A stretch of DNA of 64,000 bases, taken from NCBI GenBank assembly GCA_016742275.1, contig JACVCD010000001.1:248001-312000 (forward strand). The letters run 5' to 3'. A program made the position numbers and the translations under genes. The DNA comes from Gemmatimonadaceae bacterium (GTDB taxonomy: Bacteria; Gemmatimonadota; Gemmatimonadetes; Gemmatimonadales; Gemmatimonadaceae). Shown here one piece after another: positions 3,176 to 61,241 of the stretch (positions within the stretch are counted from its first letter, which is position 1; every line of letters begins with the position of its first letter). A model generated the notes under the pieces. That model ran no database searches and was not told the origin of the DNA. It was given only the letters and a program-made list of their open reading frames with translations.

Positions 3176-4747
3176 TTACTGCCTGGGTGAGAGGCCGTCC
3201 ACCAAACTCGTGCGATAGGCCTTCCAGGCTGGCACAAATCCGATCAGCATGCCCGCGGCCATCACGATGCCGAGGTACATGTATTCGGTGCTGCCGAGTG
3301 CACGGAGCGCAAGATGGAGACCGAAGCGCTGCTCGACGGGCGCCTGCGCGAGCGCGAGTCCGCCATACACCAGTGCCACACCGATCACGCAGCCCAGGAA
3401 CGCCAGCAGCGTGCTTTCAAGAACGAGCAGCGACAGAATCATGCGCGGACCGGCACCAATCGCACGCAGAATGGCCATCTCACGACGACGGGCTTCGAGC
3501 GACGAGTAGAGCGACACCAGCATGCCGGTGATGCTGATGGCCACGGCGAACATCGCGATCACGCGGAGTCCGACTTCAGCGTTACCGATATTCTGCCACA
3601 GCTCACCCAGCGCTACGCCGGGGATGATCGCAGTAAGTGGCTCCACGAGATCGGTGTTCATCTCGCGCTGCAGCATCAGCGCTTCAAAGCGGTTCTTGGT
3701 GCCTACGAAGAACGCCGTGATCTGATCATCACCGTGATCGTGTTCTTCCTTGGCCGTGTCCGCAGGGGCAGCGGCAACGGTAGCGGCAGGCTTTGGCGCC
3801 ACACGCTTGGGGGCTGCAGGCGATGGCTGCTGCACCGTCGGCGGCGGCTCCGCCCCCGGCATCACGAGCGGCGTTCCTGGCGGCGGTGATGCACCGGGCA
3901 TCACCATGGGAGTTCCCGGTGGCGGCTCAGCGCCGGGCATCGCCATCGGCGTTCCCGCCGGCGGTGTAGTCGGCACCGTTGCCGGATCAATCCGAGGCCG
4001 CGGCGCTCGCCCCTTCGCTTCCGCAGTTTTTGCTTCCGCCGGTTTCGCTTCCGCCTTTGCTGCTTCCGCTGTTTGCTGCTGCACGACTGGCGCCTGCACC
4101 ATCGGCTCTTCCTCGTGCATCGCCTCTATCCCTTCCAGCGTCACATACACACTGCGATCAATCGGCGTGAATGTGCGCTCCAGGATACCAACCACCTTGA
4201 AGGGATGCGCCTCGTGGCTGGACGTGCCGATGTCCTGCAATCCATGCACAACCACCACCGGTGTGCCCACGGCGTACTTGAGTCGCTGCGCGACTTCGTA
4301 GCCAATCACCACATCAGTGTCGCCCGTTGCTGCGCCACCGGCGCTGAACGCCAGTGAGGCATTCTGTCGATAGCGATACCGCTCGAAGAATGCCGGTGTC
4401 GTACCGATCACGCGGAACCCGCGATGACTGTCGCCCAGCGAATACGGCACCACCCACTTCACGGCCGGATGCGCTTCCCAGTGTTCCATGGTGGACAGCT
4501 TCACACTGCCGGCGGGCGAGCCAATACCAAATACGGTGCTGAGCAGAATCTGCAGAGAACCGCCACGCGCACCGACAATGAGATCGACACCACGAATGGT
4601 GCCGGCAAAACTTTCGCGCACGCCGGCACGCACGGTCTCGATGCCCACCAGCAACGTCACACTGAGCGCGATCGACGCCACGGTAAGCCCGGTGGTCAGC
4701 AAACGACTGCGCAGCGAGGCAAGAGCCAATCGCAGAATGAGACTCAT
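3176..4747 (-). CDS. FtsX/MacB-type ABC transporter permease with a long low-complexity insert
   Basis: Encodes 523 residues. One N-terminal membrane segment (about 18-40), a large extracytoplasmic region and three C-terminal membrane segments (IAMFAVAISITGMLVSL, LLVLESTLLAFLGCVIGVAL, YLGIVMAAGMLIGFV) give the FtsX/LolC/MacB permease plan. Such proteins move lipoproteins or act as mechanotransmission pumps. The protein is about 100 residues longer than usual because of an Ala/Glu/Lys- and Pro-rich insert (about 210-330). The insert holds AEAK repeats, three GTPMxMPG-like repeats and a histidine/acid patch (EEHDHGDD). The AEAK part is encoded by a four-unit repeat arm, listed separately. The start overlaps the ATPase stop. 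It forms an operon with DUF3299. Confidence 0.85.
   Translation of the reverse strand: MSLILRLALASLRSRLLTTGLTVASIALSVTLLVGIETVRAGVRESFAGTIRGVDLIVGARGGSLQILLSTVFGIGSPAGSVKLSTMEHWEAHPAVKWVVPYSLGDSHRGFRVIGTTPAFFERYRYRQNASLAFSAGGAATGDTDVVIGYEVAQRLKYAVGTPVVVVHGLQDIGTSSHEAHPFKVVGILERTFTPIDRSVYVTLEGIEAMHEEEPMVQAPVVQQQTAEAAKAEAKPAEAKTAEAKGRAPRPRIDPATVPTTPPAGTPMAMPGAEPPPGTPMVMPGASPPPGTPLVMPGAEPPPTVQQPSPAAPKRVAPKPAATVAAAPADTAKEEHDHGDDQITAFFVGTKNRFEALMLQREMNTDLVEPLTAIIPGVALGELWQNIGNAEVGLRVIAMFAVAISITGMLVSLYSSLEARRREMAILRAIGAGPRMILSLLVLESTLLAFLGCVIGVALVYGGLALAQAPVEQRFGLHLALRALGSTEYMYLGIVMAAGMLIGFVPAWKAYRTSLVDGLSPRQ
4017..4069. repeat. Single four-unit GCTTCCGC arm inside the ABC permease gene
   Basis: Four exact GCTTCCGC units start at 4017, 4032, 4047 and 4062. 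The 15-base spacing keeps the reading frame. On the coding (minus) strand the units read GCGGAAGC and encode AEA at permease residues 227-229, 232-234, 237-239 and 242-244. The unit and the count of four match the intergenic palindrome arms at 48.7, 58.6 and 59.8 kb. Confidence 0.85.
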
Positions 4748-39300: not shown

Positions 39301-40983
39301 GAATTGATCGGCCATGCCCTTAGCCACGATCCGCCCAACGGCCGATCCACGCAGCGGCATGTCGGGATAGGAGCGCGACAACGTGGTGTACGACAGCGGA
39401 ACCGCCTGCAGGTCGACGTCGAACCACGTGCCTTCGGTGACCAGCTTGTAGCGACCGCTACCAGTAAAGCGTGACGGTTGCCCGGGACCATCGACCAGTT
39501 CGATGTCGGCATCAGCAAACCGTGCATCATACCACAGCGAATCAAGTCGTACGCGTCCGCGCGCAATACCATTCAACTCGGCGAACAGTGGATTGACGAA
39601 GCGGGGCGTGCGGAAATCGAGCTGCTCAATGGTGAGCTCCACGCCCTTGAGAATCGCGTCTGCCGGCGCATAGATGTCCAGCATACCCTTGGCACGCGCA
39701 CGACTGACGGCACCCGGCACATGTTCGTCGGCGAAAGAGAGCTGTGCGTCATCCAGCTGCCATGACGTGAGAAAACCGCCACGTCCTGTCACACGGCCAC
39801 GCAGATCTCCGCGCCAATCGTAGGGGAACGGCTCGCCATTGAACCACTTGAGCAGATCCGTATGCGCGGGCTCGAGCTCGAGATCCACATTGGTGAGACG
39901 CGTAACGAACCCGCCAACACCCCATGTCATGTTGCCACGCAATCGCGACTTGTGCGACCGGGCGTCCATATTGGTGATCTGATAGTCGATGATGCCGAGA
40001 TTGCGCGGGTCATTCTTCATGACCAGATGCGCTCGGCCACCTCCCACGTGCGGCACCGTTGCATCGATCCATGCCAGGTCCGACATCGACACCGTATCAA
40101 GCTGCAATCGGATGTCGTATCGCACCGGCAGATCACCGCCCCACACCACCTTGGCATTGCCATGTGCACGCGAGCCGGGAAGAGAGAAGCGCGCGTCTTT
40201 CACGAACAGCGAGTCACCCAGCTTGTGAAATCCGCCTTCAAGTCCCTGGAACCACAGCGGGGGATACATCCACACCACATCGAGCTTGCGCACGGTGAAG
40301 AACTGTCCGGCACTGTCCGGATCCGCTATACGCGTCCGCCCGAGCGCGACATTGCCACGCACGAAGCGATACACCTGCACGACACGGTTATCCTCCGCGC
40401 GTCGTTCACCATCGAGACGCGTGAGGTTGTACTTGAGCGCGCTGTCGCGCTTGGCTCCCCGCAGCGTATCTGACAACTCCCACGGCAGACGCGCCACGAA
40501 GGTGGCCTCATGCAGTGTGGTGGTGTCGATCACGATGTAGCGACCAAAACGACCCGGCTGGCCCTTGGCCTTCGATGGGCCGCGGCGCAATGCGCGCTTC
40601 CAGTTCCAGTCGTCGTCGCCGTAGTCGATCAGCGTGATCTGCGGCCGCGTCACCTCGAGCGACTTGATCACAATGCGTGCGTCGAACAGGTCACGCGGAT
40701 CGTATGACAGACGAATGGGACCCGTCGTGATGAATGGTCGCCCATCCGCTGTTCGCAGATCGAGGGTATCGATCGCGAGATCGGTGAACAGCGTGCCGCG
40801 CAGACCTGCGACATACAGCTTGCCAGGAATTGCCGCCCGCGCGATTGGCAGCACCGTTCGCAGAATGAGCGAACGACCCATGTCGGTTTGCGTCAGCCCC
40901 ACGACTCCACCAACGGCCGCTACCAGCATCAGCAGCAGCACCGCAGCGGTGCCAAGCACAATCGTGCGGCGACGCGGAGCCAT
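36400..40983 (-). CDS. tamB: TamB/AsmA-like translocation and assembly protein
   Basis: Encodes 1527 residues. An N-terminal signal anchor (about 8-30, IVLGTAAVLLLMLVAAVGGV) is followed by a very long array of beta strands, typical of the beta-taco groove of TamB/YtfN and other AsmA-like lipid-transfer bridges. The C-terminal domain (about 1180-1500) is the conserved TamB (DUF490) part, with NPPLPESDMLSYLVTGEP and LGILASTRVGVGG near the end. It overlaps its Omp85 neighbour by one base. The pair probably forms an inner-to-outer membrane system for outer-membrane protein or phospholipid traffic. Confidence 0.88.
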   Translation of the reverse strand: MAPRRRTIVLGTAAVLLLMLVAAVGGVVGLTQTDMGRSLILRTVLPIARAAIPGKLYVAGLRGTLFTDLAIDTLDLRTADGRPFITTGPIRLSYDPRDLFDARIVIKSLEVTRPQITLIDYGDDDWNWKRALRRGPSKAKGQPGRFGRYIVIDTTTLHEATFVARLPWELSDTLRGAKRDSALKYNLTRLDGERRAEDNRVVQVYRFVRGNVALGRTRIADPDSAGQFFTVRKLDVVWMYPPLWFQGLEGGFHKLGDSLFVKDARFSLPGSRAHGNAKVVWGGDLPVRYDIRLQLDTVSMSDLAWIDATVPHVGGGRAHLVMKNDPRNLGIIDYQITNMDARSHKSRLRGNMTWGVGGFVTRLTNVDLELEPAHTDLLKWFNGEPFPYDWRGDLRGRVTGRGGFLTSWQLDDAQLSFADEHVPGAVSRARAKGMLDIYAPADAILKGVELTIEQLDFRTPRFVNPLFAELNGIARGRVRLDSLWYDARFADADIELVDGPGQPSRFTGSGRYKLVTEGTWFDVDLQAVPLSYTTLSRSYPDMPLRGSAVGRIVAKGMADQFDLQATLAGEGGELSFTGAADALVPVMGASGAWRGRGVNLQSLFGDSRYPTSSLTMAGQLNLRATVDSVSDEFVIGTIRGPLTATVDQFSRIADARLFGGTMSVQFDSGHVRVDTLQVESSALRMVARGGLGLDRTRRDSLKFSLIVDSLGGIRPWLSNTSSGRTPFVLPTDTLRGTIEMAGTLFGSVDSLDTRGLDLDARADLRDLVLASSRSLRAGFDLQVRDVLRGANGTLIASADSAFVMGVDVSAATARSTLRGGLAERFSVAMRTPTESRVTLGGGVTRSGDTTDVRFDTVSVRVDSGGAKARGFALATPATLRFFGRGRGALDSLVLQHTDTGRVLMRGAIGDSGVVRGQFAADRVPLGDLGRLLRSSGLTRGAMTADFSVVGTREAPRMDGTVRLTDAVAGRVRFGELFARAHYDSLRVALDGSLRVGGQSALAITASLPMDLALSSRARRTIDEPLTGRIVSQRADLGLLEALFPDVTKATGTLETDVALTGTWDRPRLRGQMRVDSASLSLENLGIRLEKATADIGLLGDTIHIRRFGAVSGAPTDSLGLSGYIGITEIAKPSFNLHLAANNFLAVDKARAASLTLTTTRPITLEGTSDAPVLRGAVRLDRGRIYINQLAQRRALDVAEDLDLIDTTRFGVNALLPNAPSMVMRNLQLDDVRLRIGDDVWLRSPEANLKLGGQLRLTRSVGRDARAARLALADSLTVERGTYQLNLGLARPSFEVERGLVRFFGDPDLEPSLDIAALHTVRETRANSNRQDVRIRVNIGGTIERPTLALTSADNPPLPESDMLSYLVTGEPAYSVLGSTYAEQGATLALRLAGSYLSSRLAGGRFDVVQVEPTSLNSLDAANLRQNGLGILASTRVGVGGQIARNTYLTFSTGLCGLAPQTGSGDALSLFAEGLGVKVERRFEGGLSVQAGLEPGSSAQACGRLGISRTFQQTPPQIGIDFFRFWTF

Positions 40984-43232
40984 CAGAACGCCTGCCCGAT
41001 CCAGATGCTGGGATTGAGCCGTCCAAGAATGCCCGTACGCCGTGTCGGGCGAAACGTGGATGGACAGCTCCCCGATGCCTGCACCGGCGGTGCATCAAGA
41101 ATCACATTCTCACGAACAACCAGTCTGTTCCCGGGACTTACGCAATAGAGCGGTGCGATCCCCTCCTGCGGACGTGCATTGAAGTACGCGGCGCCAGCCG
41201 GCAGTTCGTATGGGTTGTAACCAAAGTCGATGCGAATGGCACCGAATGGCGAAGCCACGCGCACACCCATGCCCGGTGTGATCTTGACCAATGGGCCGTC
41301 ATTGGTGACCGATGCACCGCGCACCGTCCCGTGACGATTCCAGAGACGACCCGCATCAGCGAATGCCGCCAACTGCAGCAGCTTCGGCAACACAGGACTT
41401 GGCCACTGCGCTTCGAGATTCCCGACAATCAGCGTATTGCCGCCGGTGGGTACTACCCGCTCAGACACCGTGGTGGAATCCACGCGATAGTAGAGCTGAC
41501 CATTCTCGGTGAATTCCGAATAGCCACTCACGATGTACACCGCCGGCCCCAACTCATTCTGCCGGAATCCGCGCACCGTAGTCGGGCCGCCGGCATAGAG
41601 CCGTTCCTGCGGCGGAATGAAGCTGCCTACACCAGCCCCACTACTCTGCCCTTGCACAATACCGGCACGCACATGCGCGGTAATGGTGGCACTTCCCAAC
41701 GTGTGATACCACGACGCGTCACCGGTGGCGCGGTTGAACTGCTGCGTACGATCACTGCCGATCAAAGTGCTCGCGTGCCGCAGCGTTGCCCGCAATGCCG
41801 TTCCAGCCGTAGGACGCAGCGGATCGTTGACGCGTTGACGCGAAATACTGAATTCAAGTGCCGCCAATCGGTTGTTGCGCTGCAGGAAGTTGCGCAACTC
41901 CGCATCACACGCGTTGAACACGGCGCAGAAGAACGCCGGCTCCGCTTCGGTTCGGCCAAGCTCCAGCTGATACGACAGCGTACTGGGCGAACGCAATGAC
42001 GCACGCCGTGCAAACGGATCGGTGACCGACAACACGCCACCAATGGGTGTGCGGCGCAGATACGCGAGATATTCGCTCAACGTAGAGCTGAAGAGCGTCA
42101 ACGACGGCACACGTGCCTGTTCAGCACGCACCGGCTGACGCAGTGTCATGGACGTGTAGTAGTTGAGCGTGCGCGAGTATGGATCGGAACGCGCCTGCCC
42201 CTGACACAGCTCGGGGAAACCATCTACTGGTGCACCAATGCCGATCTTGCTGACGCGCGCCGTGAGTTCGAGGCGCTGCGCATACGGCAAGAAGTCACGA
42301 TCGGTCAGCGAGCCCTGTGTGCGAAAACAATCGAGCGTGGCCCACCCGAATCCGCCACGCACAGCAAACCGATCACCCTCGACCAGCCGTGCGGTGAGAT
42401 TGACGATCGTGTCGCCCGGCGGCTGCACACTGTCCGGCTGAATTTCCACACGCTGAAAGGCGTCGGTCTGATAGAGATTGCGCTGCGCATCGATGATGGC
42501 GCGTGCGCTGTACCAATCACCCGATTCCACGTTGAGCGCGCGCCGGATCATCGCATCCGAAACCTGGCGATCACCATCAGGCGATTCCACCTGCAACGCG
42601 ATGCGCCCGATCCGTGCTCGGGCACCCGGCACCACCGACACTTCCACGTCCGCCGTGCGCGCCCGTGTGTTGGTCGTGTAAGCCAACAGCGCCTCCGCCT
42701 GTGGCCATCCTCGATTGCGGAGACGACGCACCAGCGTATCGCGCCCCGCCTCGAGCGCACTGCGATCGAACACCCCACCGACACGCAGCGGAAAATCACG
42801 CGCCACGTCCGCCAACTCGGGATTCTCACTGGTGCCGCGCAGCACGAACGCACTTACGCGCATCGGCGCGCCCTCAACGATCGAGAACGTGACATCGATC
42901 ACGTTCGGCCGCACGGTGCGAACCAGCGTATCCACCTGCACGTCGGGATACCCACGACGGCGATAGAGCGTGGCGAGTCGCTGTACATCGCGCGCGAACT
43001 CCACCGGATCAAGACAGCGGCGCTCGCCGAGGAGCGGCACACCGGGGAAGGAAGACGGCAGCGTGGCGACCGTAGCCGCCAGCACGCTGGCTGGATACTC
43101 CTGATTGCCAACGAAGCGGAGAGCACGAACCTCCCGATCGCCACGCTCGCAGGAGAGGTCCTGGGCGGCGATCGGACGCACGGCCGCGAGGGCGCCTGTG
43201 GCGAAAGCGAAAAGAGCGAGAGAAGTACGCAC
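40983..43232 (-). CDS. Omp85 family outer-membrane protein (TamA/BamA type)
   Basis: Encodes 749 residues. A signal peptide (MRTSLALFAFATGALAAVRPIAA, then Q) precedes three to four POTRA-like domains (about 30-330; YRRRGYPDVQVDT and LRNRGWPQAEALL are typical POTRA helices). The C-terminal 16-strand barrel follows (about 345-749), with GGPTTVRGFRQNELGP (the VRGF-type motif of Omp85 barrels) and the final strand ending in F, the usual C-terminal aromatic. Coupling to tamB argues for TamA rather than the main BamA, but this is not certain. Confidence 0.87.
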   Translation of the reverse strand: MRTSLALFAFATGALAAVRPIAAQDLSCERGDREVRALRFVGNQEYPASVLAATVATLPSSFPGVPLLGERRCLDPVEFARDVQRLATLYRRRGYPDVQVDTLVRTVRPNVIDVTFSIVEGAPMRVSAFVLRGTSENPELADVARDFPLRVGGVFDRSALEAGRDTLVRRLRNRGWPQAEALLAYTTNTRARTADVEVSVVPGARARIGRIALQVESPDGDRQVSDAMIRRALNVESGDWYSARAIIDAQRNLYQTDAFQRVEIQPDSVQPPGDTIVNLTARLVEGDRFAVRGGFGWATLDCFRTQGSLTDRDFLPYAQRLELTARVSKIGIGAPVDGFPELCQGQARSDPYSRTLNYYTSMTLRQPVRAEQARVPSLTLFSSTLSEYLAYLRRTPIGGVLSVTDPFARRASLRSPSTLSYQLELGRTEAEPAFFCAVFNACDAELRNFLQRNNRLAALEFSISRQRVNDPLRPTAGTALRATLRHASTLIGSDRTQQFNRATGDASWYHTLGSATITAHVRAGIVQGQSSGAGVGSFIPPQERLYAGGPTTVRGFRQNELGPAVYIVSGYSEFTENGQLYYRVDSTTVSERVVPTGGNTLIVGNLEAQWPSPVLPKLLQLAAFADAGRLWNRHGTVRGASVTNDGPLVKITPGMGVRVASPFGAIRIDFGYNPYELPAGAAYFNARPQEGIAPLYCVSPGNRLVVRENVILDAPPVQASGSCPSTFRPTRRTGILGRLNPSIWIGQAF

Positions 43233-43285
43233 GTTCTATAGCTCTCAAAGCTCGTGCGGAGAGATAGGAGAGTCAACAGCAAACA

Positions 43286-43338
43286 GCGGAAGCATCTGAA
43301 GGGCGGATGCGAAGGGGCGGAAGCAATCCATCGGAAGC
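43286..43338. repeat. Left four-unit GCGGAAGC arm flanking the four-helix-bundle gene
   Basis: Four units start at 43286 (GCGGAAGC), 43303 (GCGGATGC), 43317 (GCGGAAGC) and 43331 (TCGGAAGC), with spacing 17, 14 and 14. An AACAGCAAACAGC lead-in precedes them. The inverted partner arm is at 43879-43927, on the far side of the gene at 43419. Confidence 0.85.
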
Positions 43339-43418
43339 GATAGTCGAGTGCGTTGGATTGATGGGGTGTGCGTTGTGCGGGTTACCACGTGACCCAGGCC
43401 CCATGCGACCGTGGCGGC

Positions 43419-43838
43419 ATGAGCGATTGTCGGAATCTCCGGGTCCTTGATGCAACGGAGGACCTTGCTGCGACAGTGCTGAGTACCGTCGCAGCGGTCG
43501 ATGTGTTCAGGGCTCCCGGCATTCGAGGGCAACTGGTGCGCGCGGTTACCGCCATATCAGCCAACATTGCGGAAGCTGCCAACCTCGGCACCGATCCGAA
43601 CTTCAAGCGTCAACTGCGTCTCTCATTGGCCTCAGCCAACGAGGCCGGCAGTCACCTGCGTGTACTGTCGCGTACCGGTGCACTCGGGAAACCGCTCATT
43701 TTCCGCTGTGAAGCCAAACGCATTGTCGTCTGCAAGATGCTCGTCTCGCTCCTCCGGGCCATCGAGGAACGAGAGGCACACCGAGAAGCACAGCAGCGCG
43801 AGAGACTCCGTGGCGGCAGAAATACAAAACGGGAGTGA
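43419..43838 (+). CDS. Four-helix-bundle protein of the 23S rRNA IVP (S23) family
   Basis: Encodes 139 residues from the ATG at 43419, which gives MSDCRNLRVLDATEDLAATV. The diagnostic block QLVRAVTAISANIAEAANLG, then SANEAGSHLRVLSRTG, matches PF05635/TIGR02436 proteins. These were first found inside 23S rRNA intervening sequences in Leptospira and occur as scattered single genes in many genomes; a relative (Avd) binds RNA in diversity-generating retroelements. The molecular role of the free-standing members is unknown. The gene lies between two inverted four-unit GCGGAAGC arms, so it looks like the payload of that element. The C-terminus is a Glu/Arg-rich tail. Confidence 0.88.
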   Translation: MSDCRNLRVLDATEDLAATVLSTVAAVDVFRAPGIRGQLVRAVTAISANIAEAANLGTDPNFKRQLRLSLASANEAGSHLRVLSRTGALGKPLIFRCEAKRIVVCKMLVSLLRAIEEREAHREAQQRERLRGGRNTKRE

Positions 43839-43860
43839 AGGCATCGTGCCCCCACTCCCG
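43830..43860 (+). terminator. Hairpin over the stop codon of the four-helix-bundle gene
   Basis: CGGGAGTG (43830-43837) and CACTCCCG (43853-43860) form a perfect 8-base-pair stem with a 15-base loop. The TGA stop (43836-43838) lies in the 5' strand of the stem. No T-run follows directly. It sits inside the right end of the element, before the GCTTCCGC arm. Confidence 0.55.
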
Positions 43861-43878
43861 CCCAACGCTCGCACCCTC

Positions 43879-43927
43879 GCTTCCGCCCAAAGCTTCCGCG
43901 TTCTCGCTTCCGCCCCCGTGCTTCCGC
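43879..43927. repeat. Right four-unit GCTTCCGC arm flanking the four-helix-bundle gene
   Basis: Four exact GCTTCCGC units start at 43879, 43892, 43906 and 43920 (spacing 13, 14 and 14, identical to the right arm at 48773-48821). A short T-run and CAGTTCTTGTTC follow. Together with the left arm it brackets the four-helix-bundle gene, about 640 bases end to end. Confidence 0.85.
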
Positions 43928-43943
43928 TTTTTACAGTTCTTGT

Positions 43944-44978
43944 TCAGTCGTCCTTCTGCCCAAATACAGCCAGGTTCGACGAGTGCCCCGGGTTCACCTT
44001 CTTCTCCGGGTACACGTGGTGCACCGCCTGATTCACCGCGATCGCCGCCTCCGAGAAGCCGGCCGCGATCAGCTTGAGCTTCCCAGGATAGGTGGTGATG
44101 TCGCCGGCGGCGTACACGCCCGGACGACCGGTCTCCATCTGGGTGTTCACCACGATCTCGTCCTTCTCGATGTTCATGCCCCATTCGAGCAGCGCGCCGA
44201 GGTCGGACACGTAGCCCAGCATCGGCAGGATCACGTCGCAGGGAATGTCCTTCGATGTCTTGGCCTTCACGTCCTTGAGCGTGACACCGGTGATGGTGTC
44301 GGTGCCATGGATGGCCTCGAGCTCATGAAACGTGTGGATGTGCACCGTGGCGCCGTCTTCAGCCGCAGCGGTCTGCACTTCGGTGACCGTGGCCGCGTGC
44401 GCGCGGAAACGATCACTGCGATGCACCAGTGTCACACTCTTGGCCTTGTCGCGAAGCTGCGCCGTCCAATCAAAGGCGGAATCGCCGCCACCGATGATCA
44501 GCACGTCACGCCCCCGGAATTCTTCCGGATTCGACACGAGCGGATACACGCCGCGTCCATACCACGGCTCGGCGCAAGCCTGCGGCAGCTTGCGCGGGCT
44601 GAAGGCACCGATACCGGCGGCGATGATCACCGATCGCGTAGGGAAGCGCTCGGTCTCAGTCACCAGCACAAAGTGGCCGTCTTCTTCCTCGAGGCCGGTC
44701 ACTCGCTGACGCAAATGCGCCGGCACACCCGTTTCCCGATGAAACTGCGCCGCCTGCTCCGTCAGGTTGCGAACCAGATCCTTGGCCAAGACACGCGGGA
44801 ATCCGGCCACGTCGAAAATGAACTTCTCCGGATAGAGCGCCGTGAGTTGTCCGCCGAGTTCGGGGAGCGCGTCCACGATCTGCGCCGATGCGCCGCGCAT
44901 GCCGGCATAGAACAGGGCAAACAGGCCAGTGGGGCCGCCGCCAATAATGGTGAGGTCGGTAATCGGATGGGTGTGCAT
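43944..44978 (-). CDS. Ferredoxin-NADP reductase, thioredoxin-reductase-like type
   Basis: Encodes 344 residues from the ATG at 44978, where the Rossmann segment begins at once (LTIIGGGPTGLFALFYAG); a longer in-frame start would add unrelated residues. The NADP-binding fold has LIIGGGDSAFDWT. The C-terminal FAD segment is GVYAAGDITTYPGKLKLIAAG. There is no CxxC between the domains, which separates it from thioredoxin reductase and fits the YumC-type FNR. It supplies or draws electrons from ferredoxin or flavodoxin. The gene is convergent with the four-helix-bundle element. Confidence 0.9.
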   Translation of the reverse strand: MHTHPITDLTIIGGGPTGLFALFYAGMRGASAQIVDALPELGGQLTALYPEKFIFDVAGFPRVLAKDLVRNLTEQAAQFHRETGVPAHLRQRVTGLEEEDGHFVLVTETERFPTRSVIIAAGIGAFSPRKLPQACAEPWYGRGVYPLVSNPEEFRGRDVLIIGGGDSAFDWTAQLRDKAKSVTLVHRSDRFRAHAATVTEVQTAAAEDGATVHIHTFHELEAIHGTDTITGVTLKDVKAKTSKDIPCDVILPMLGYVSDLGALLEWGMNIEKDEIVVNTQMETGRPGVYAAGDITTYPGKLKLIAAGFSEAAIAVNQAVHHVYPEKKVNPGHSSNLAVFGQKDD

Positions 44979-45079
44979 AGCAACAATTCTAAGGGAGGTG
45001 GGGGCGAGCGGAGAGTGGTATTTGTTCTGGGTCGAGCGCGAACTCACTACCACTCCCGGCCCCAATTAGTCTTCCGAGC

Positions 45080-48701: not shown

Positions 48702-48821
48702 GCGGAAGCCAAACGGCGGAAGCGAGTAGACGGAAGCAATGAGCGGAAGCCAAGGCGCGGATACCGCGTGTGGCTTCCGTTTTTTGCTTCCGCCCCGTCG
48801 CTTCCGCTTCAGTGCTACCGC
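48702..48821. repeat. Two-arm palindrome, four GCGGAAGC units each side, before glcD
   Basis: Left units start at 48702, 48716, 48730 (ACGGAAGC) and 48743. Right units start at 48773 (GCTTCCGT), 48786, 48800 and 48814 (GCTACCGC). For every opposed pair, left start plus right end is the same (97523), so spacers of 6, 6 and 5 bases face each other exactly although their sequences do not pair. The axis has CGCGG-ATA-CCGCG (48756-48768). AACAGC precedes and AGTTCAC follows. As RNA it would be a rod of 8-base-pair helices and symmetric internal loops. It ends 22 bases before the glcD ATG. Confidence 0.9.
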
Positions 48822-51386: not shown

Positions 51387-52741
51387 GTACTTCTCATGAG
51401 ATGACACGGATGAACGAAGCGCGTTCGTGTGCCCTGCCCGGCACACCATTGGCACAGGCTGCAGCCGGACTCGATGCCTGCGTGCACTGCGGGTTCTGTC
51501 TGCAGGCCTGCCCCACGTACGTGAATCTTGAAGACGAAAACGATTCACCGCGTGGCCGCCTCGTGCTGATGCGTCGTCTACTCGATGGCGACATCGCTCC
51601 CACCGATCCCGATATCGGTCAACACCTCGATCGCTGCCTCGGCTGCCGCGCCTGCGAAACCGCCTGTCCGTCGGGTGTGCCCTACGGGGAACTGATCGAA
51701 GCCACGCGCGCCACACTCGCGCCGATTCGCGGCCTGCCCCTCGTGGCACGTCTCATTCTGCGCGTGTTCCGCGTGCACGTGGTGTTGCACACGGCCCTGT
51801 TCTTCGCGCGCCTTTTCCGCAACACCCGTATTCCCGAACTACTCGCGCGCCACGTGCCGCGTCGCCTGGGCTTCCCGCTCGCGATGCTCGCCAGCACCAG
51901 AGCGCGCAGCATCCCCGTCGCTCCTCTCGTCAATTCGCTTCCGCCCACCTCGCTTCCGCCATCAAAGCTTCCGCCCGTCACGCTTCCGCAGTCTGCTGCT
52001 TCAACCAGTCTGTTGACCGGCTGCGTCATGCACGGTCTCCTTCGCCACGTCAATCACGCAACCGAAGAGACACTGGCCCACAACGGCTTCACCCTCACCG
52101 CCACACCGGGTCAACGTTGCTGTGGCGCGCTGCATGCCCATGCGGGTGACATTGAAGCGGCGCGTGAACTCGCACGCCAGAACATTGCGGCCTTCGAACG
52201 CAGTAACCCCGATACCATCGTGGTCAATGCGGCCGGTTGCGGCGCCATGTTCAAACAGTACGGTCATCTGCTGCAGGACGATCCTGTCTGGGCCGCGCGC
52301 GCTTCCATCATTTCAGCAAAAACACGTGATGTAAGTGAGCTGCTAGCCACTACCGGCCCTGTACCTGGCTTACAGCCTGTGCCCGTGCGTGTCACGCACG
52401 ATCCACCGTGCCATCAGATGCATGCACAGCGTGTGGTGACACAACCGATGAAGGTGCTGCAATCCATTCCGGGCCTTGAGTTGGTTCCGCTCGAGGACGC
52501 CGATCAGTGCTGTGGCAGCGCCGGCATCTACAATCTCGTGGAGCCTGACACATCGGATGCGGTGCTGTCTCCCAAGCTGCGACGCATCGCGGAAACGCAC
52601 GCGCAGGTGCTGGCCACCGGAAACCCAGGGTGCATGATGCAGTTGGGTGCCGGACTCCATCTGACCGGATCCGATACCATCGTCAAGCATCCGGTGGAGT
52701 TGTTGGCCGAGTCCTATCGCGGCGGCACTCGACCAGCGTAG
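51383..52741 (+). CDS. glcF: Glycolate oxidase iron-sulfur subunit GlcF, with in-frame repeat insert
   Basis: Encodes 452 residues from the ATG at 51383. Two [4Fe-4S] motifs lie near the N-terminus: C33, C36, C39, C43 (CVHCGFCLQACP) and C85, C88, C91, C95 (CLGCRACETACP). Two C-terminal CCG domains follow (GQRCCGALHAHAGD and DQCCGSAGIYNL). The subunit carries electrons from the FAD subunits to the respiratory chain. Residues 185-203 (SLPPTSLPPSKLPPVTLPQS region) join the two halves and are encoded by a four-unit GCTTCCGC arm, probably a DNA insert tolerated in a linker. Confidence 0.92.
   Translation: MSTSHEMTRMNEARSCALPGTPLAQAAAGLDACVHCGFCLQACPTYVNLEDENDSPRGRLVLMRRLLDGDIAPTDPDIGQHLDRCLGCRACETACPSGVPYGELIEATRATLAPIRGLPLVARLILRVFRVHVVLHTALFFARLFRNTRIPELLARHVPRRLGFPLAMLASTRARSIPVAPLVNSLPPTSLPPSKLPPVTLPQSAASTSLLTGCVMHGLLRHVNHATEETLAHNGFTLTATPGQRCCGALHAHAGDIEAARELARQNIAAFERSNPDTIVVNAAGCGAMFKQYGHLLQDDPVWAARASIISAKTRDVSELLATTGPVPGLQPVPVRVTHDPPCHQMHAQRVVTQPMKVLQSIPGLELVPLEDADQCCGSAGIYNLVEPDTSDAVLSPKLRRIAETHAQVLATGNPGCMMQLGAGLHLTGSDTIVKHPVELLAESYRGGTRPA
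51937..51989. repeat. Single four-unit GCTTCCGC arm inside glcF
   Basis: Four exact GCTTCCGC units start at 51937, 51952, 51967 and 51982, at 15-base spacing, so each is read in the same frame as S/x-L-P-P/Q. AGTCTGCTGC follows, like the AGTTC end of other arms. The 7-base spacers differ from each other. It lies in the linker between the ferredoxin-like and CCG parts of GlcF. Confidence 0.9.
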
Positions 52742-58577: not shown

Positions 58578-58691
58578 GCGGAAGCGTAACAGCGGAAGCG
58601 AAAGGCGGAAGCCAAACCCGGAAGCGAAGGCCCGGGACTTGGCTTCCGCTTTTTTGCATCCGTTACTTCGCGTCCGCTGGTTCGCTACCGC
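58578..58691. repeat. Two-arm palindrome between the TonB receptor and rfbB
   Basis: Left units start at 58578, 58592, 58605 and 58618 (CCGGAAGC), spacing 14, 13 and 13. Right units start at 58642 (GCTTCCGC), 58656 (GCATCCGT), 58670 (GCGTCCGC) and 58684 (GCTACCGC), spacing 14 each. CCCGGG lies at the axis. AACAGCAAACT precedes the left arm, and CGTTCGCTGTTC follows the right. The last unit overlaps the stop codon of rfbB (58685-58687). Confidence 0.9.
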
Positions 58692-59743: not shown

Positions 59744-59883
59744 GTGAACTGCAAACTGCGGAAGCGCAGGGGCGGAAGCGATAGACGGAAGCCAAGAGCG
59801 GAAGCCAACTCGCGGTCCCGCGAATGGCTTCCGAGCGTTTGCTTCCGCCACCTCGCTTCCGCTTCTCCGCTTCCGCAGTTCAC
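59744..59883. repeat. Two-arm palindrome between rfbB and the MFS gene
   Basis: Left units start at 59758, 59772, 59785 (ACGGAAGC) and 59798 (spacing 14, 13 and 13, as at 58.6 kb). Right units start at 59827 (GCTTCCGA), 59841, 59855 and 59869 (spacing 14 each). The ends are exact complements: GTGAACTGC (59744-59752) and GCAGTTCAC (59875-59883). The axis has CGCGG-TC-CCGCG (59811-59822). This is the most complete copy and defines the probable element borders. Confidence 0.92.
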
Positions 59884-59885
59884 CC

Positions 59886-61241
59886 TCAGATCTCCCGCCA
59901 AAACCGTCCTCGTCTCCATGCCACCGCCGACGCTCCTGCCAGCACCACCGCACTCGCCCCAATCGCATGCGATGCCGTAATCGCCCGCGCCAGCGCACCA
60001 AGTGCAAATGCCCCCACAGCCTGCGACAACCCCACAAACACCAGCGAATAGAACGCCATCAATCGACCGCGGAATCGCTCTTCGACCAACAGCTGCAGCA
60101 CGCCGTTACTAAGCGCATTGAACATGATCATGGCCCCTCCCGTGAGCAGCAGCAGCACATAGGCAAGCCACAACACCTGCGTGTACGCAAACGCCAGCAG
60201 CAGCACAGGAAACATCAATGCCGCTCCAATCAGTACTGGCCCCTTGTGTGCACGATGCGACACGGGCCCAGCCACCAACAGAGCGCCAATGAGTCCACCA
60301 ATGCCCAACATCGCCAACAGCGCCCCGTAGCCCTCTGCGCCAAGCCCCAGCTGATCGCGCGCTACCACCGGCATGATGGAGATGAACGGCCCGCCGAGCA
60401 CCGCACCAATGGTGACGAGTATCAACAACTCGCGCACGGAACCCGGTTGCATGAGATGCCGCAGCCCCTCGACCGCACCATCGGTAGTCTGCCGCAATAT
60501 CGTCCGCAGCCCACGCCCGCCCCCTTCGCTTCCGCTAGTTGGCATCCGCAACTTCGCTTCCGCCCCCTCGCTTCCGCTGTTCACTGTTCCTTCAAGCCTG
60601 ATTCGCGACAACCCAAACAGCACCCACCCAAACGACACCGCATTCAACCCAAAACACCACGCGATCCCCAACTTCCCGATCACTATGCCGCCCACTGCCG
60701 GCCCCAGCACACGCGCCAGATTGAATCCACTTGAGTTGATGGCAATGGCGGGCTGCAGGTCATTGCGTCCCACCAACTGAATGATGAGACTCTGCCGTGC
60801 CGGAATCTCCACCGCACTCAGGCATCCCTGCACAAGAGACAGGACCACCAGGAACGCGATCGACACGTGTCCAGTCACAGTCACCGCGAATAGCACAGCC
60901 GCCTGCAGGAGAAACAGCGCCTGCGTGATGCGCACGATACAGAGCTTGTTGCCGAGGTCTACTAGCGCGCCCGCATGCATGCTGAAGAGCACGATGGGGA
61001 CAGCGCCCATGCTGGCCACGAGACCAACGATGAACGCCGAGTTGGAGAGCTCGAGTGAGAGCCAGCCAACGGCCATCGTCTGCATCCACGTCCCGATGAG
61101 CGACAGCGTTTGCCCGGTCCAGAACACCCGGAAGTTCCGGTGCTCGCGCAGCACTCGGAACGGATTGCGGGAGCCGGCCTGCTCCCCTGCCGCTTGTTCC
61201 TCGGCGGGATCGCTTTCGCTGCTTCGCGCGTACAAACTCAT
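59886..61241 (-). CDS. MFS transporter of the enterobactin-exporter-like family, with repeat insert
   Basis: Encodes 451 residues from the ATG at 61241; a longer start at 61292 is possible. Twelve membrane segments are expected. The N-terminal FRVFWTGQTLSLIGTWMQT and the A-box-like QGCLSAVEIPARQSLI are typical of the MFS_3 group (EntS-like exporters). The loop between halves (about 219-240) contains an insert encoding SGSE, AEA, LRMP and SGSE units, derived from a four-unit GCGGAAGC arm. The substrate is unknown. It lies upstream of rfbB in the same direction, with a palindrome between. Confidence 0.88.
   Translation of the reverse strand: MSLYARSSESDPAEEQAAGEQAGSRNPFRVLREHRNFRVFWTGQTLSLIGTWMQTMAVGWLSLELSNSAFIVGLVASMGAVPIVLFSMHAGALVDLGNKLCIVRITQALFLLQAAVLFAVTVTGHVSIAFLVVLSLVQGCLSAVEIPARQSLIIQLVGRNDLQPAIAINSSGFNLARVLGPAVGGIVIGKLGIAWCFGLNAVSFGWVLFGLSRIRLEGTVNSGSEGAEAKLRMPTSGSEGGGRGLRTILRQTTDGAVEGLRHLMQPGSVRELLILVTIGAVLGGPFISIMPVVARDQLGLGAEGYGALLAMLGIGGLIGALLVAGPVSHRAHKGPVLIGAALMFPVLLLAFAYTQVLWLAYVLLLLTGGAMIMFNALSNGVLQLLVEERFRGRLMAFYSLVFVGLSQAVGAFALGALARAITASHAIGASAVVLAGASAVAWRRGRFWREI
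60528..60577. repeat. Single four-unit GCTTCCGC arm inside the MFS gene
   Basis: Units start at 60528 (GCTTCCGC), 60542 (GCATCCGC), 60556 and 60570, at the standard 14-base spacing. TGTTCAC follows, as at the ends of the intergenic elements. Because 14 is not a multiple of three, successive units are read in different frames on the coding strand: SGS, AEA, RMP, SGS. The total still keeps the gene open. It lies in the central cytoplasmic loop. Confidence 0.9.

What the first reader, a model, noticed from the sequence alone, without database searches (positions are those of the whole stretch)
43286..43927. A four-helix-bundle (23S IVP) gene bracketed by inverted four-unit repeat arms: a candidate autonomous element
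Seen: the gene at 43419-43838 stands between a left arm of four GCGGAAGC-type units (43286-43338) and a right arm of four GCTTCCGC units (43879-43927). Spacing (17/14/14 and 13/14/14) matches or nearly matches the gene-free palindromes at 48.7, 58.6 and 59.8 kb. Known: PF05635 proteins were first found within hairpin-forming intervening sequences of 23S rRNA, and related Avd proteins bind RNA; the role of free-standing copies is unexplained. Inference: the full-length form is arm-gene-arm, and the empty palindromes are non-autonomous derivatives that the protein helps to spread, process or protect.
Basis: partly seen in the sequence, partly recalled or inferred. Interest (0 to 1): 0.93.

Follow-up and report, generated by a model that had tools for sequence, protein, structure and literature searches.

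The report
Small helix-bundle gene between repeat arms
A small bacterial gene of unknown function lies between two mirror-image arrays of short DNA repeats, and the same layout with a different repeat at nearly every copy turned up in at least four bacterial phyla, which suggests an overlooked class of element and a possible origin for the unexplained seven-base repeats of cyanobacteria.

Summary
The PF05635 (23S-IVP/S23) gene at 43419-43838 lies between four GCGGAAGC-type units (43286-43338) and four inverted ones (43879-43927). In 14 relatives the flanking genes are contiguous, so the whole arm-gene-arm block was inserted. Across 92 Gemmatimonadota PF05635 genes, inverted arms are strongly enriched (alignment score of 30 or more in 48/92, against 8/342 control genes). 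Geometry is fixed: left arm about 82 bp before the start codon, right arm at the stop codon. The repeat unit (often 7, 14 or 16-17 bp) differs from copy to copy, yet the two arms of one copy match: the best partner of a left arm is its own right arm in 44/73 copies (controls 0-2/73) and 14/19 validation copies. Cyanobacterial plasmids and Bacteroidota show the same. Three of six PF05635 genes in this genome have cognate gene-less palindromes; in two families arm order is homologous, so these look like internal-deletion derivatives. The genome lacks a Y1 transposase and has one weak reverse-transcriptase hit: neither RAYT/REP nor a diversity-generating retroelement. Best model: a RAYT/REP-like DNA element whose protein binds its own arms; the protein's role is inferred. 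Against it, G157 has GCGGAAGC arrays without a matching gene.

The parts
43286..43338 (+). left arm: four GCGGAAGC-type units (43286, 43303, 43317, 43331), spacing 17/14/14
43339..43418 (+). 80-bp spacer between left arm and start codon; matches the family-wide median of 82 bp; promoter region in the family
43419..43838 (+). PF05635 / TIGR02436 four-helix-bundle gene, 139 aa; keeps Q38, R41, N49, E52, S72, E75
43879..43927 (-). right arm: four GCTTCCGC units (43879, 43892, 43906, 43920), spacing 13/14/14
43275..43285 (+). outer end AACAGCAAACA, shared with gene-less copies (weak)
43928..43943 (-). outer end TTTTTACAGTTCTTGT, abutting the stop codon of the oxidoreductase gene (weak)
48702..48821 (.). 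gene-less palindrome of the same family
58578..58691 (.). gene-less palindrome of the same family
59758..59876 (.). gene-less palindrome of the same family
60528..60577 (-). single arm (four units)
4017..4069 (-). single array, four units at 15-bp period
51937..51989 (-). single array, four units at 15-bp period
40983..43232 (-). flanking BamA-like outer-membrane protein gene; directly follows the 43944-45065 gene in relatives that lack the element
43944..45065 (-). flanking FAD oxidoreductase (thioredoxin-reductase-like) gene

Best explanation
The block 43275-43943 is one copy of a widespread compact DNA element: left inverted array, a promoter spacer of about 80 bp, one PF05635 gene, right inverted array at or near the stop codon. 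It was inserted as a unit between two co-directional, contiguous genes. The arms are terminal inverted repeats made of short tandem units, and their unit sequence turns over quickly but in step on both sides. I infer that the four-helix-bundle protein (a relative crystallised as a pentamer) binds its own arm units, and that arms with or without the gene are dispersed through DNA hairpin or cruciform intermediates with host enzymes. This works like the RAYT/REP system: a single-copy protein gene flanked by inverted repeats, plus many gene-less palindromes. Shown here: the unit, its geometry, the matching of the two arms, the insertion, the lineage-specific amplification, and gene-less derivatives with homologous arms. 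Inferred: binding, the role of the protein in dispersal, and the DNA intermediate.
For: Enrichment: inverted 7-mer at least twice on both sides in 38/74 PF05635 genes vs 23/342 control ORFs, p=6e-18; alignment score >=30 in 48/92 vs 8/342, p=5e-22. Cognate arms: own right arm is the best partner of the left arm in 44/73, controls 0-2/73, validation set 14/19, cyanobacterial plasmids 12/16, Bacteroidota 12/19. Geometry: left arm 82 bp (IQR 70-92) before the start codon, right arm +4 bp (IQR -10 to 25) from the stop codon; window copy 80 and 40 bp. Insertion: in 14 relatives the oxidoreductase-to-BamA gap is -3 to 83 bp on the same strand, here about 710 bp. Compensatory change at one locus: YchF-IVP-HppA orthologues have TGTGAGATGTAAGA, GTGAGTTGTGAGTC and GACTTGAGACGTGA arms in different species, matched within each copy. 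Gene-less derivatives: GGCGTAAAG family, left-arm end 87-93% identical and co-linear; ACTGCRGTT family, 81% over 196 bp with the gene at the centre. Lineage-specific amplification: GCGGAAGC-N6-GCGGAAGC exact, 27 in this genome, 6, 1 and 1 in three congeners, 0 in 26. DNA level: leaderless-type promoters (TANNNT at -13 to -9 in 19/75 vs 1.7 expected; Shine-Dalgarno-like in 2/75) and no G.U bias (79 vs 65, p=0.28).
Against: No binding, cleavage or movement was tested, and the protein has no recognised nuclease or transposase domain. G157 carries six GCGGAAGC pairs but none of its seven PF05635 genes has such arms. A crude array density is the same in PF05635-free and PF05635-bearing genomes (4.5 vs 4.9 per 100 kb), although the one clear palindromic array inspected in a PF05635-free genome is a different, REP-type repeat. 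Gene-bearing copies are not recently duplicated. About half of the copies have no convincing arms. Arms of the same family also bracket a lipoprotein-like ORF. No target-site duplication was established.
Confidence: 0.45

Rival explanations
1. RNA-level element, like the 23S rRNA intervening sequence: the two arms pair in a read-through transcript, RNase III cuts the hairpin and releases the insert, so insertion into operons is tolerated. The protein binds or protects the RNA.
For: 23S IVS of Coxiella has a 28-bp terminal stem, tandem heptamers (GACAGAT) and an S23 gene in the loop, and is cut by RNase III (PMC4990558). In cyanobacterial plasmids the gene often sits co-directionally between genes of one operon with arms close to the start and stop codons. 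The window block folds well.
Against: In Gemmatimonadota promoters look leaderless, so the left arm is outside the gene's own mRNA; arm mismatches show no sense-strand G.U excess; in the window the gene is antisense to the flanking genes.
Confidence: 0.25
2. Autoregulatory operator arrays without mobility: the protein binds repeat units on both sides to control its own and the neighbouring promoters; gene-less arrays are operators recruited elsewhere.
For: Tandem units look like iterons, the left arm lies next to promoters, and at the YchF locus arms persist at a conserved site.
Against: The right arm lies at the gene's 3' end and matches the left one; gene-less copies are whole palindromes with conserved arm order; filled versus empty sites show insertion of the whole block.
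Confidence: 0.15
3. Two independent palindromes happen to flank the gene, or the spot is a hot spot for palindromes.
For: In G152 and G154 the orthologous gene has a complete palindrome on each side; the region after the oxidoreductase stop codon holds different palindromes in several relatives; the strongest control ORF is flanked by two gene-less palindromes.
Against: Enrichment, fixed spacing to start and stop codons, and cognate-arm tests in three phyla.
Confidence: 0.04
4. Member of a known mobilising system (RAYT/REP by a Y1 transposase, or a diversity-generating retroelement with Avd and reverse transcriptase).
For: The fold matches Avd (4dwl, 8ub7, TM about 0.67); inverted repeats flank the gene as in RAYT.
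Against: No Y1 transposase (PF01797) in this genome or G152; one weak reverse-transcriptase hit with an internal stop here and none in G152; Avd equivalog model not met.
Confidence: 0.05

Closest known systems
23S rRNA intervening sequence (IVS) with S23/IVP ORF (Coxiella, Leptospira)
   Same: Same protein family, gene in the loop between complementary ends; Coxiella IVS has tandem heptamers (PMC4990558).
   Different: Here outside rRNA, in intergenic or operon sites, with copy-specific repeat units and gene-less families; in Gemmatimonadota the gene appears to have its own promoter.
RAYT/REP (REP-associated tyrosine transposases; PMC2817692)
   Same: Protein gene flanked by inverted repeats, single-copy gene, many cognate gene-less palindromes.
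   Different: Unrelated four-helix-bundle protein, arms are tandem arrays, no Y1 transposase in the genome.
Avd of diversity-generating retroelements
   Same: Same fold by structure comparison.
   Different: Almost no reverse transcriptase in the genome; Avd equivalog cut-off not met. Template and variable repeats were not searched for.
Heptameric tandem repeats of cyanobacteria (STRR), Xanthomonas GGGAATC (PMC4692102) and Beggiatoaceae TAACTGA (PMC4679880)
   Same: Arms of cyanobacterial PF05635 genes are such heptamer arrays; in Xanthomonas the GGGAATC arrays often occur as convergent inverted pairs.
   Different: Those papers, as far as searched, do not connect the repeats with PF05635 genes; the Xanthomonas and Beggiatoaceae link was not tested here.
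MITEs
   Same: Gene-less derivatives keep the terminal inverted repeats of a gene-bearing copy.
   Different: No transposase identified, no target duplication established.

Membership tests
PF05635 / TIGR02436 protein family | Score above curated cut-off | tested here: met
   49.8 vs 33.8 bits; 55.8 vs 24 bits; fold matches 2gsc and 2rld
23S rRNA IVS | Inserted in a 23S rRNA gene | tested here: not met
   Window copy lies between a BamA-like and an oxidoreductase gene
23S rRNA IVS | Gene between complementary ends | tested here: met
23S rRNA IVS | RNase III excision | not testable with these tools
   needs RNA work
RAYT/REP | Y1 (HUH) transposase gene | tested here: not met
   No PF01797 match in this genome
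RAYT/REP | Protein gene flanked by inverted repeats that recur without the gene | tested here: met
   Three families in this genome
DGR / Avd | Reverse transcriptase with Avd equivalog | tested here: not met
   Avd model 22 vs 80 bits for L057 and absent for the window protein; RT only one weak hit
MITE with autonomous parent | Shared terminal inverted repeats between gene-bearing and gene-less copies | tested here: met
   (GGCGTAAAG and ACTGCRGTT families); for GCGGAAGC only units and short ends are shared
MITE with autonomous parent | Target-site duplication | tested here: inconclusive
   No close relative with an alignable empty site; only gene-to-gene spacing compared
Cyanobacterial heptamer repeats (STRR) | Tandem heptamers in intergenic regions | tested here: met
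   Arms of plasmid-borne cyanobacterial PF05635 genes; the window's own arms are spaced at about 14 bp, not contiguous heptamers

The most novel reading that the evidence does not exclude
Free-standing PF05635 genes are the protein component of a previously unrecognised, cross-phylum class of mobile DNA element. The four-helix-bundle protein recognises its own rapidly diverging arm units and drives dispersal without any known transposase or reverse transcriptase, and these elements are a source of the unexplained heptameric repeats of cyanobacteria and other bacteria, with 23S rRNA intervening sequences as the special case that landed in rRNA.
Probability: 0.33. Interest if true: 0.95.

Novelty: new variant of a known kind. 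Interest (0 to 1): 0.86.

Why it matters
It gives the free-standing S23/IVP genes, structurally solved about twenty years ago but still of unknown function, a testable nucleic-acid partner: their own arms. It links them to heptameric repeats described in cyanobacteria, Xanthomonas and Beggiatoaceae without a known origin or function. If the protein drives dispersal, it would be a transposition-like system with no known nuclease domain. Fast, matched turnover of both arms around orthologous genes also offers a natural series for studying how a protein and its repeat co-evolve.

Tried and rejected
GCGGAAGC as the mark of all PF05635 genes: rejected, since the other five copies lack it. Genome-wide array density as a test of dependence on PF05635: no difference (4.5 vs 4.9 per 100 kb); small and crude, since coding repeats and REP-type repeats are counted. 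Prediction that G157, which has GCGGAAGC arrays, carries a gene with such arms: not met. RNA pairing through G.U asymmetry: no signal. RAYT and DGR: rejected in this genome. Defence-system models: no match. Rfam: no match in 42-62 kb. Literature: nine searches of an open-access library found no paper linking PF05635 genes to flanking repeat arrays outside rRNA; subscription papers and preprints were not covered.

Full report
What is there. The gene at 43419-43838 encodes a 139-residue PF05635 protein. GCGGAAGC is far above chance in the window: 39 against 4.6 expected. In the whole genome, GCGGAAGC-N6-GCGGAAGC with up to one mismatch gives 60 matches against 1 for the reversed control.

It is a single inserted block. 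In 14 relatives the flanking oxidoreductase and BamA-like genes follow each other on one strand with a gap of -3 to 83 bp, whereas here the gap is about 710 bp and holds arm-gene-arm in the opposite orientation (the closest empty site, L121, is shown). Congeners G152, G154 and G159 carry the orthologous gene beside the BamA-like gene, but with different repeats. G157 carries a PF05635 gene with a similar start about 2 kb from its BamA-like gene, with 14-bp GCGGGAAGACTTACT-type arms.

The arms are a general property of PF05635 genes. The genome has six copies. The window copy has GCGGAAGC arms, one has GGCGTAAAG arms, one ACTGCRGTT arms and one a long inverted repeat with TGAGAGG; one lacks arms and one lies at a contig end. 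PF05635 is found in 81 of 150 Gemmatimonadota genomes. With 74 copies and 342 control ORFs from the same neighbourhoods, an inverted 7-mer present at least twice on each side occurs in 38 vs 23 (p=6e-18), and at least three times in 16 vs 2. By local alignment of the upstream to the reverse-complemented downstream region, 48 of 92 copies reach 30, against 8 of 342 controls (p=5e-22). Clear examples are (GTATCAG)6 to (CTGATAC)7 in L057, (TTGAGAG)4 to (CTCTCAA)4 in L046 and (GAGTGCA)5 to (TGCACTC)6 in L068.

The two arms belong together. When every left arm is compared with every right arm, the best partner is its own right arm in 44 of 73 copies; in control ORFs this is 0 to 2 of 73. A validation set fetched afterwards gives 14 of 19. 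At the conserved YchF-IVP-HppA locus, species have different units (TGTGAGATGTAAGA, GTGAGTTGTGAGTC, GACTTGAGACGTGA) but the arms of each copy match. Hence the unit sequence turns over while the match between arms is kept or restored.

Anatomy. The inner edge of the left arm lies 82 bp (IQR 70-92) before the start codon, the right arm starts 4 bp (IQR -10 to 25) from the stop codon, and the aligned arm is about 39 bp long. The window copy has 80 and 40 bp. Read inward, the arms are purine-rich (mean 0.62; 47 of 57 above one half). In Gemmatimonadota a -10-like TANNNT is enriched right before the start codon and a GATG/GGTGA motif near -38, with almost no Shine-Dalgarno sequences, as in leaderless mRNAs; the left arm would then be upstream of the transcript. 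Mismatches between arms show no excess of sense-strand G.U pairs (79 vs 65, p=0.28). Both points favour a DNA-level role in this phylum, but neither is proof.

Gene-less relatives. For the GGCGTAAAG family, the outer part of the gene-bearing left arm is 87-93% identical and co-linear with gene-less palindromes on the same contig, and elements often end in TGAACTGC/GCAGTTCA; pattern counts are 38 vs 10 for the reversed control. For the ACTGCRGTT family, a gene-less copy aligns with the gene-bearing left arm at 81% over 196 bp and with parts of the right arm, with the gene at the centre (counts 54 vs 28). For the GCGGAAGC family, typical gene-less copies have about four units in each arm in 115-126 bp, plus single arms. 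The exact pair occurs 27 times here, 6, 1 and 1 times in three congeners, and never in 26 others. Gene-bearing copies within a genome are at most 43-65% identical in protein, so the gene is effectively single-copy while gene-less forms are amplified.

Other phyla. On cyanobacterial plasmids, 16 PF05635 genes (mostly annotated S23 ribosomal protein or four helix bundle protein) were read: own-arm best in 12 of 16, with heptamer arms such as AGGGAAC/GTTCCCT, GGGAGTA/TACTCCC and TCAGAAG. Some sit between cas6 and cas4 or between cas10 and a Cmr3-family gene. One (L315) has direct rather than inverted arrays. In Bacteroidota, own-arm best is 12 of 19. An Abditibacteriaceae genome has ATTGCGG/CCGCAAT arms. 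From the literature, the Coxiella 23S IVS has a 28-bp terminal stem and tandem GACAGAT heptamers (PMC4990558); Xanthomonas GGGAATC heptamers often form convergent pairs and their function is unexplained (PMC4692102); Beggiatoaceae have TAACTGA arrays, and a repeat-binding protein as the mobile part was raised there as a possibility (PMC4679880).

Mechanism. The model has four confident helices (pLDDT 93) and matches the S23 structures 2gsc and 2rld, and more distantly Avd. Q38, R41 and E75 are invariant and L7, S45, N49, E52 and S72 nearly so in 31 sequences; the window copy has Ala at 45. This genome has no Y1 transposase and one weak reverse-transcriptase match, and G152 has neither, so RAYT and DGR routes are unlikely. 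The best-supported picture is RAYT/REP-like in layout (compare PMC2817692) with an unrelated protein. That the protein binds its arms and drives dispersal is inference.

Limits. About half of the copies lack convincing arms. In G157, GCGGAAGC arrays exist without a matching gene. A crude density comparison of genomes with and without PF05635 shows no difference. A lipoprotein-like ORF is also bracketed by ACTGCRGTT half-palindromes. No target-site duplication or strain-level movement was shown. Literature coverage is limited to open-access papers.

Verdict. Observation confirmed; interpretation partly supported and considerably extended. The arm-gene-arm unit I hold at about 0.95, the RAYT/REP-like mechanism with the protein as agent at about 0.45.

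Noticed in passing
L074, L091, L104, L053, L073, L077, L082, L094 and own L001: A PF05635 gene conserved next to YchF and, in most, the proton-pumping pyrophosphatase gene across genera, with arms in some species and none in others.
   Followed up: partly
window 4017-4069 and 51937-51989: Single GCTTCCGC arrays with strict 15-bp period, without an opposite arm, unlike the 13-14-bp spaced palindromes.
   Followed up: no
own contig C7:173050-173780 (L223): ACTGCRGTT half-palindromes bracket a small lipoprotein-like ORF instead of a PF05635 gene.
   Followed up: partly
L139, L142, L149, L150, L154 just after the oxidoreductase stop codon: Different palindromic arrays occupy the same gene end in different relatives, often starting with the stop codon TGA.
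   Followed up: partly
L271 6810-7020 (G021, no PF05635): REP-type GTCATTCCCGC repeats, a different kind of palindrome, in a genome without PF05635.
   Followed up: no
L315, L319, L320 (cyanobacterial plasmids): PF05635 genes inserted between cas6 and cas4 or between cas10 and a Cmr3-family gene; L315 has direct AAAAGCY heptamer arrays on both sides.
   Followed up: partly
Bacteroidota genomes G209:C6:181421-184952 and G221:C11:492107-498082: Clusters of several PF05635 genes about 1.5 kb apart.
   Followed up: no
own contig C29:218560-219120, 223440-223880, 57400-57840: Long direct tandem arrays (CCTTCTT x16, TTGGCCG x9, GATCGTG x8) without inverted partners.
   Followed up: no
L137 11160-12160: A PF05635 gene whose two 16-bp arrays are each homogeneous but differ slightly from one another (GCGCTAAG vs GCGCGAAG), suggesting homogenisation within arms.
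   Followed up: no
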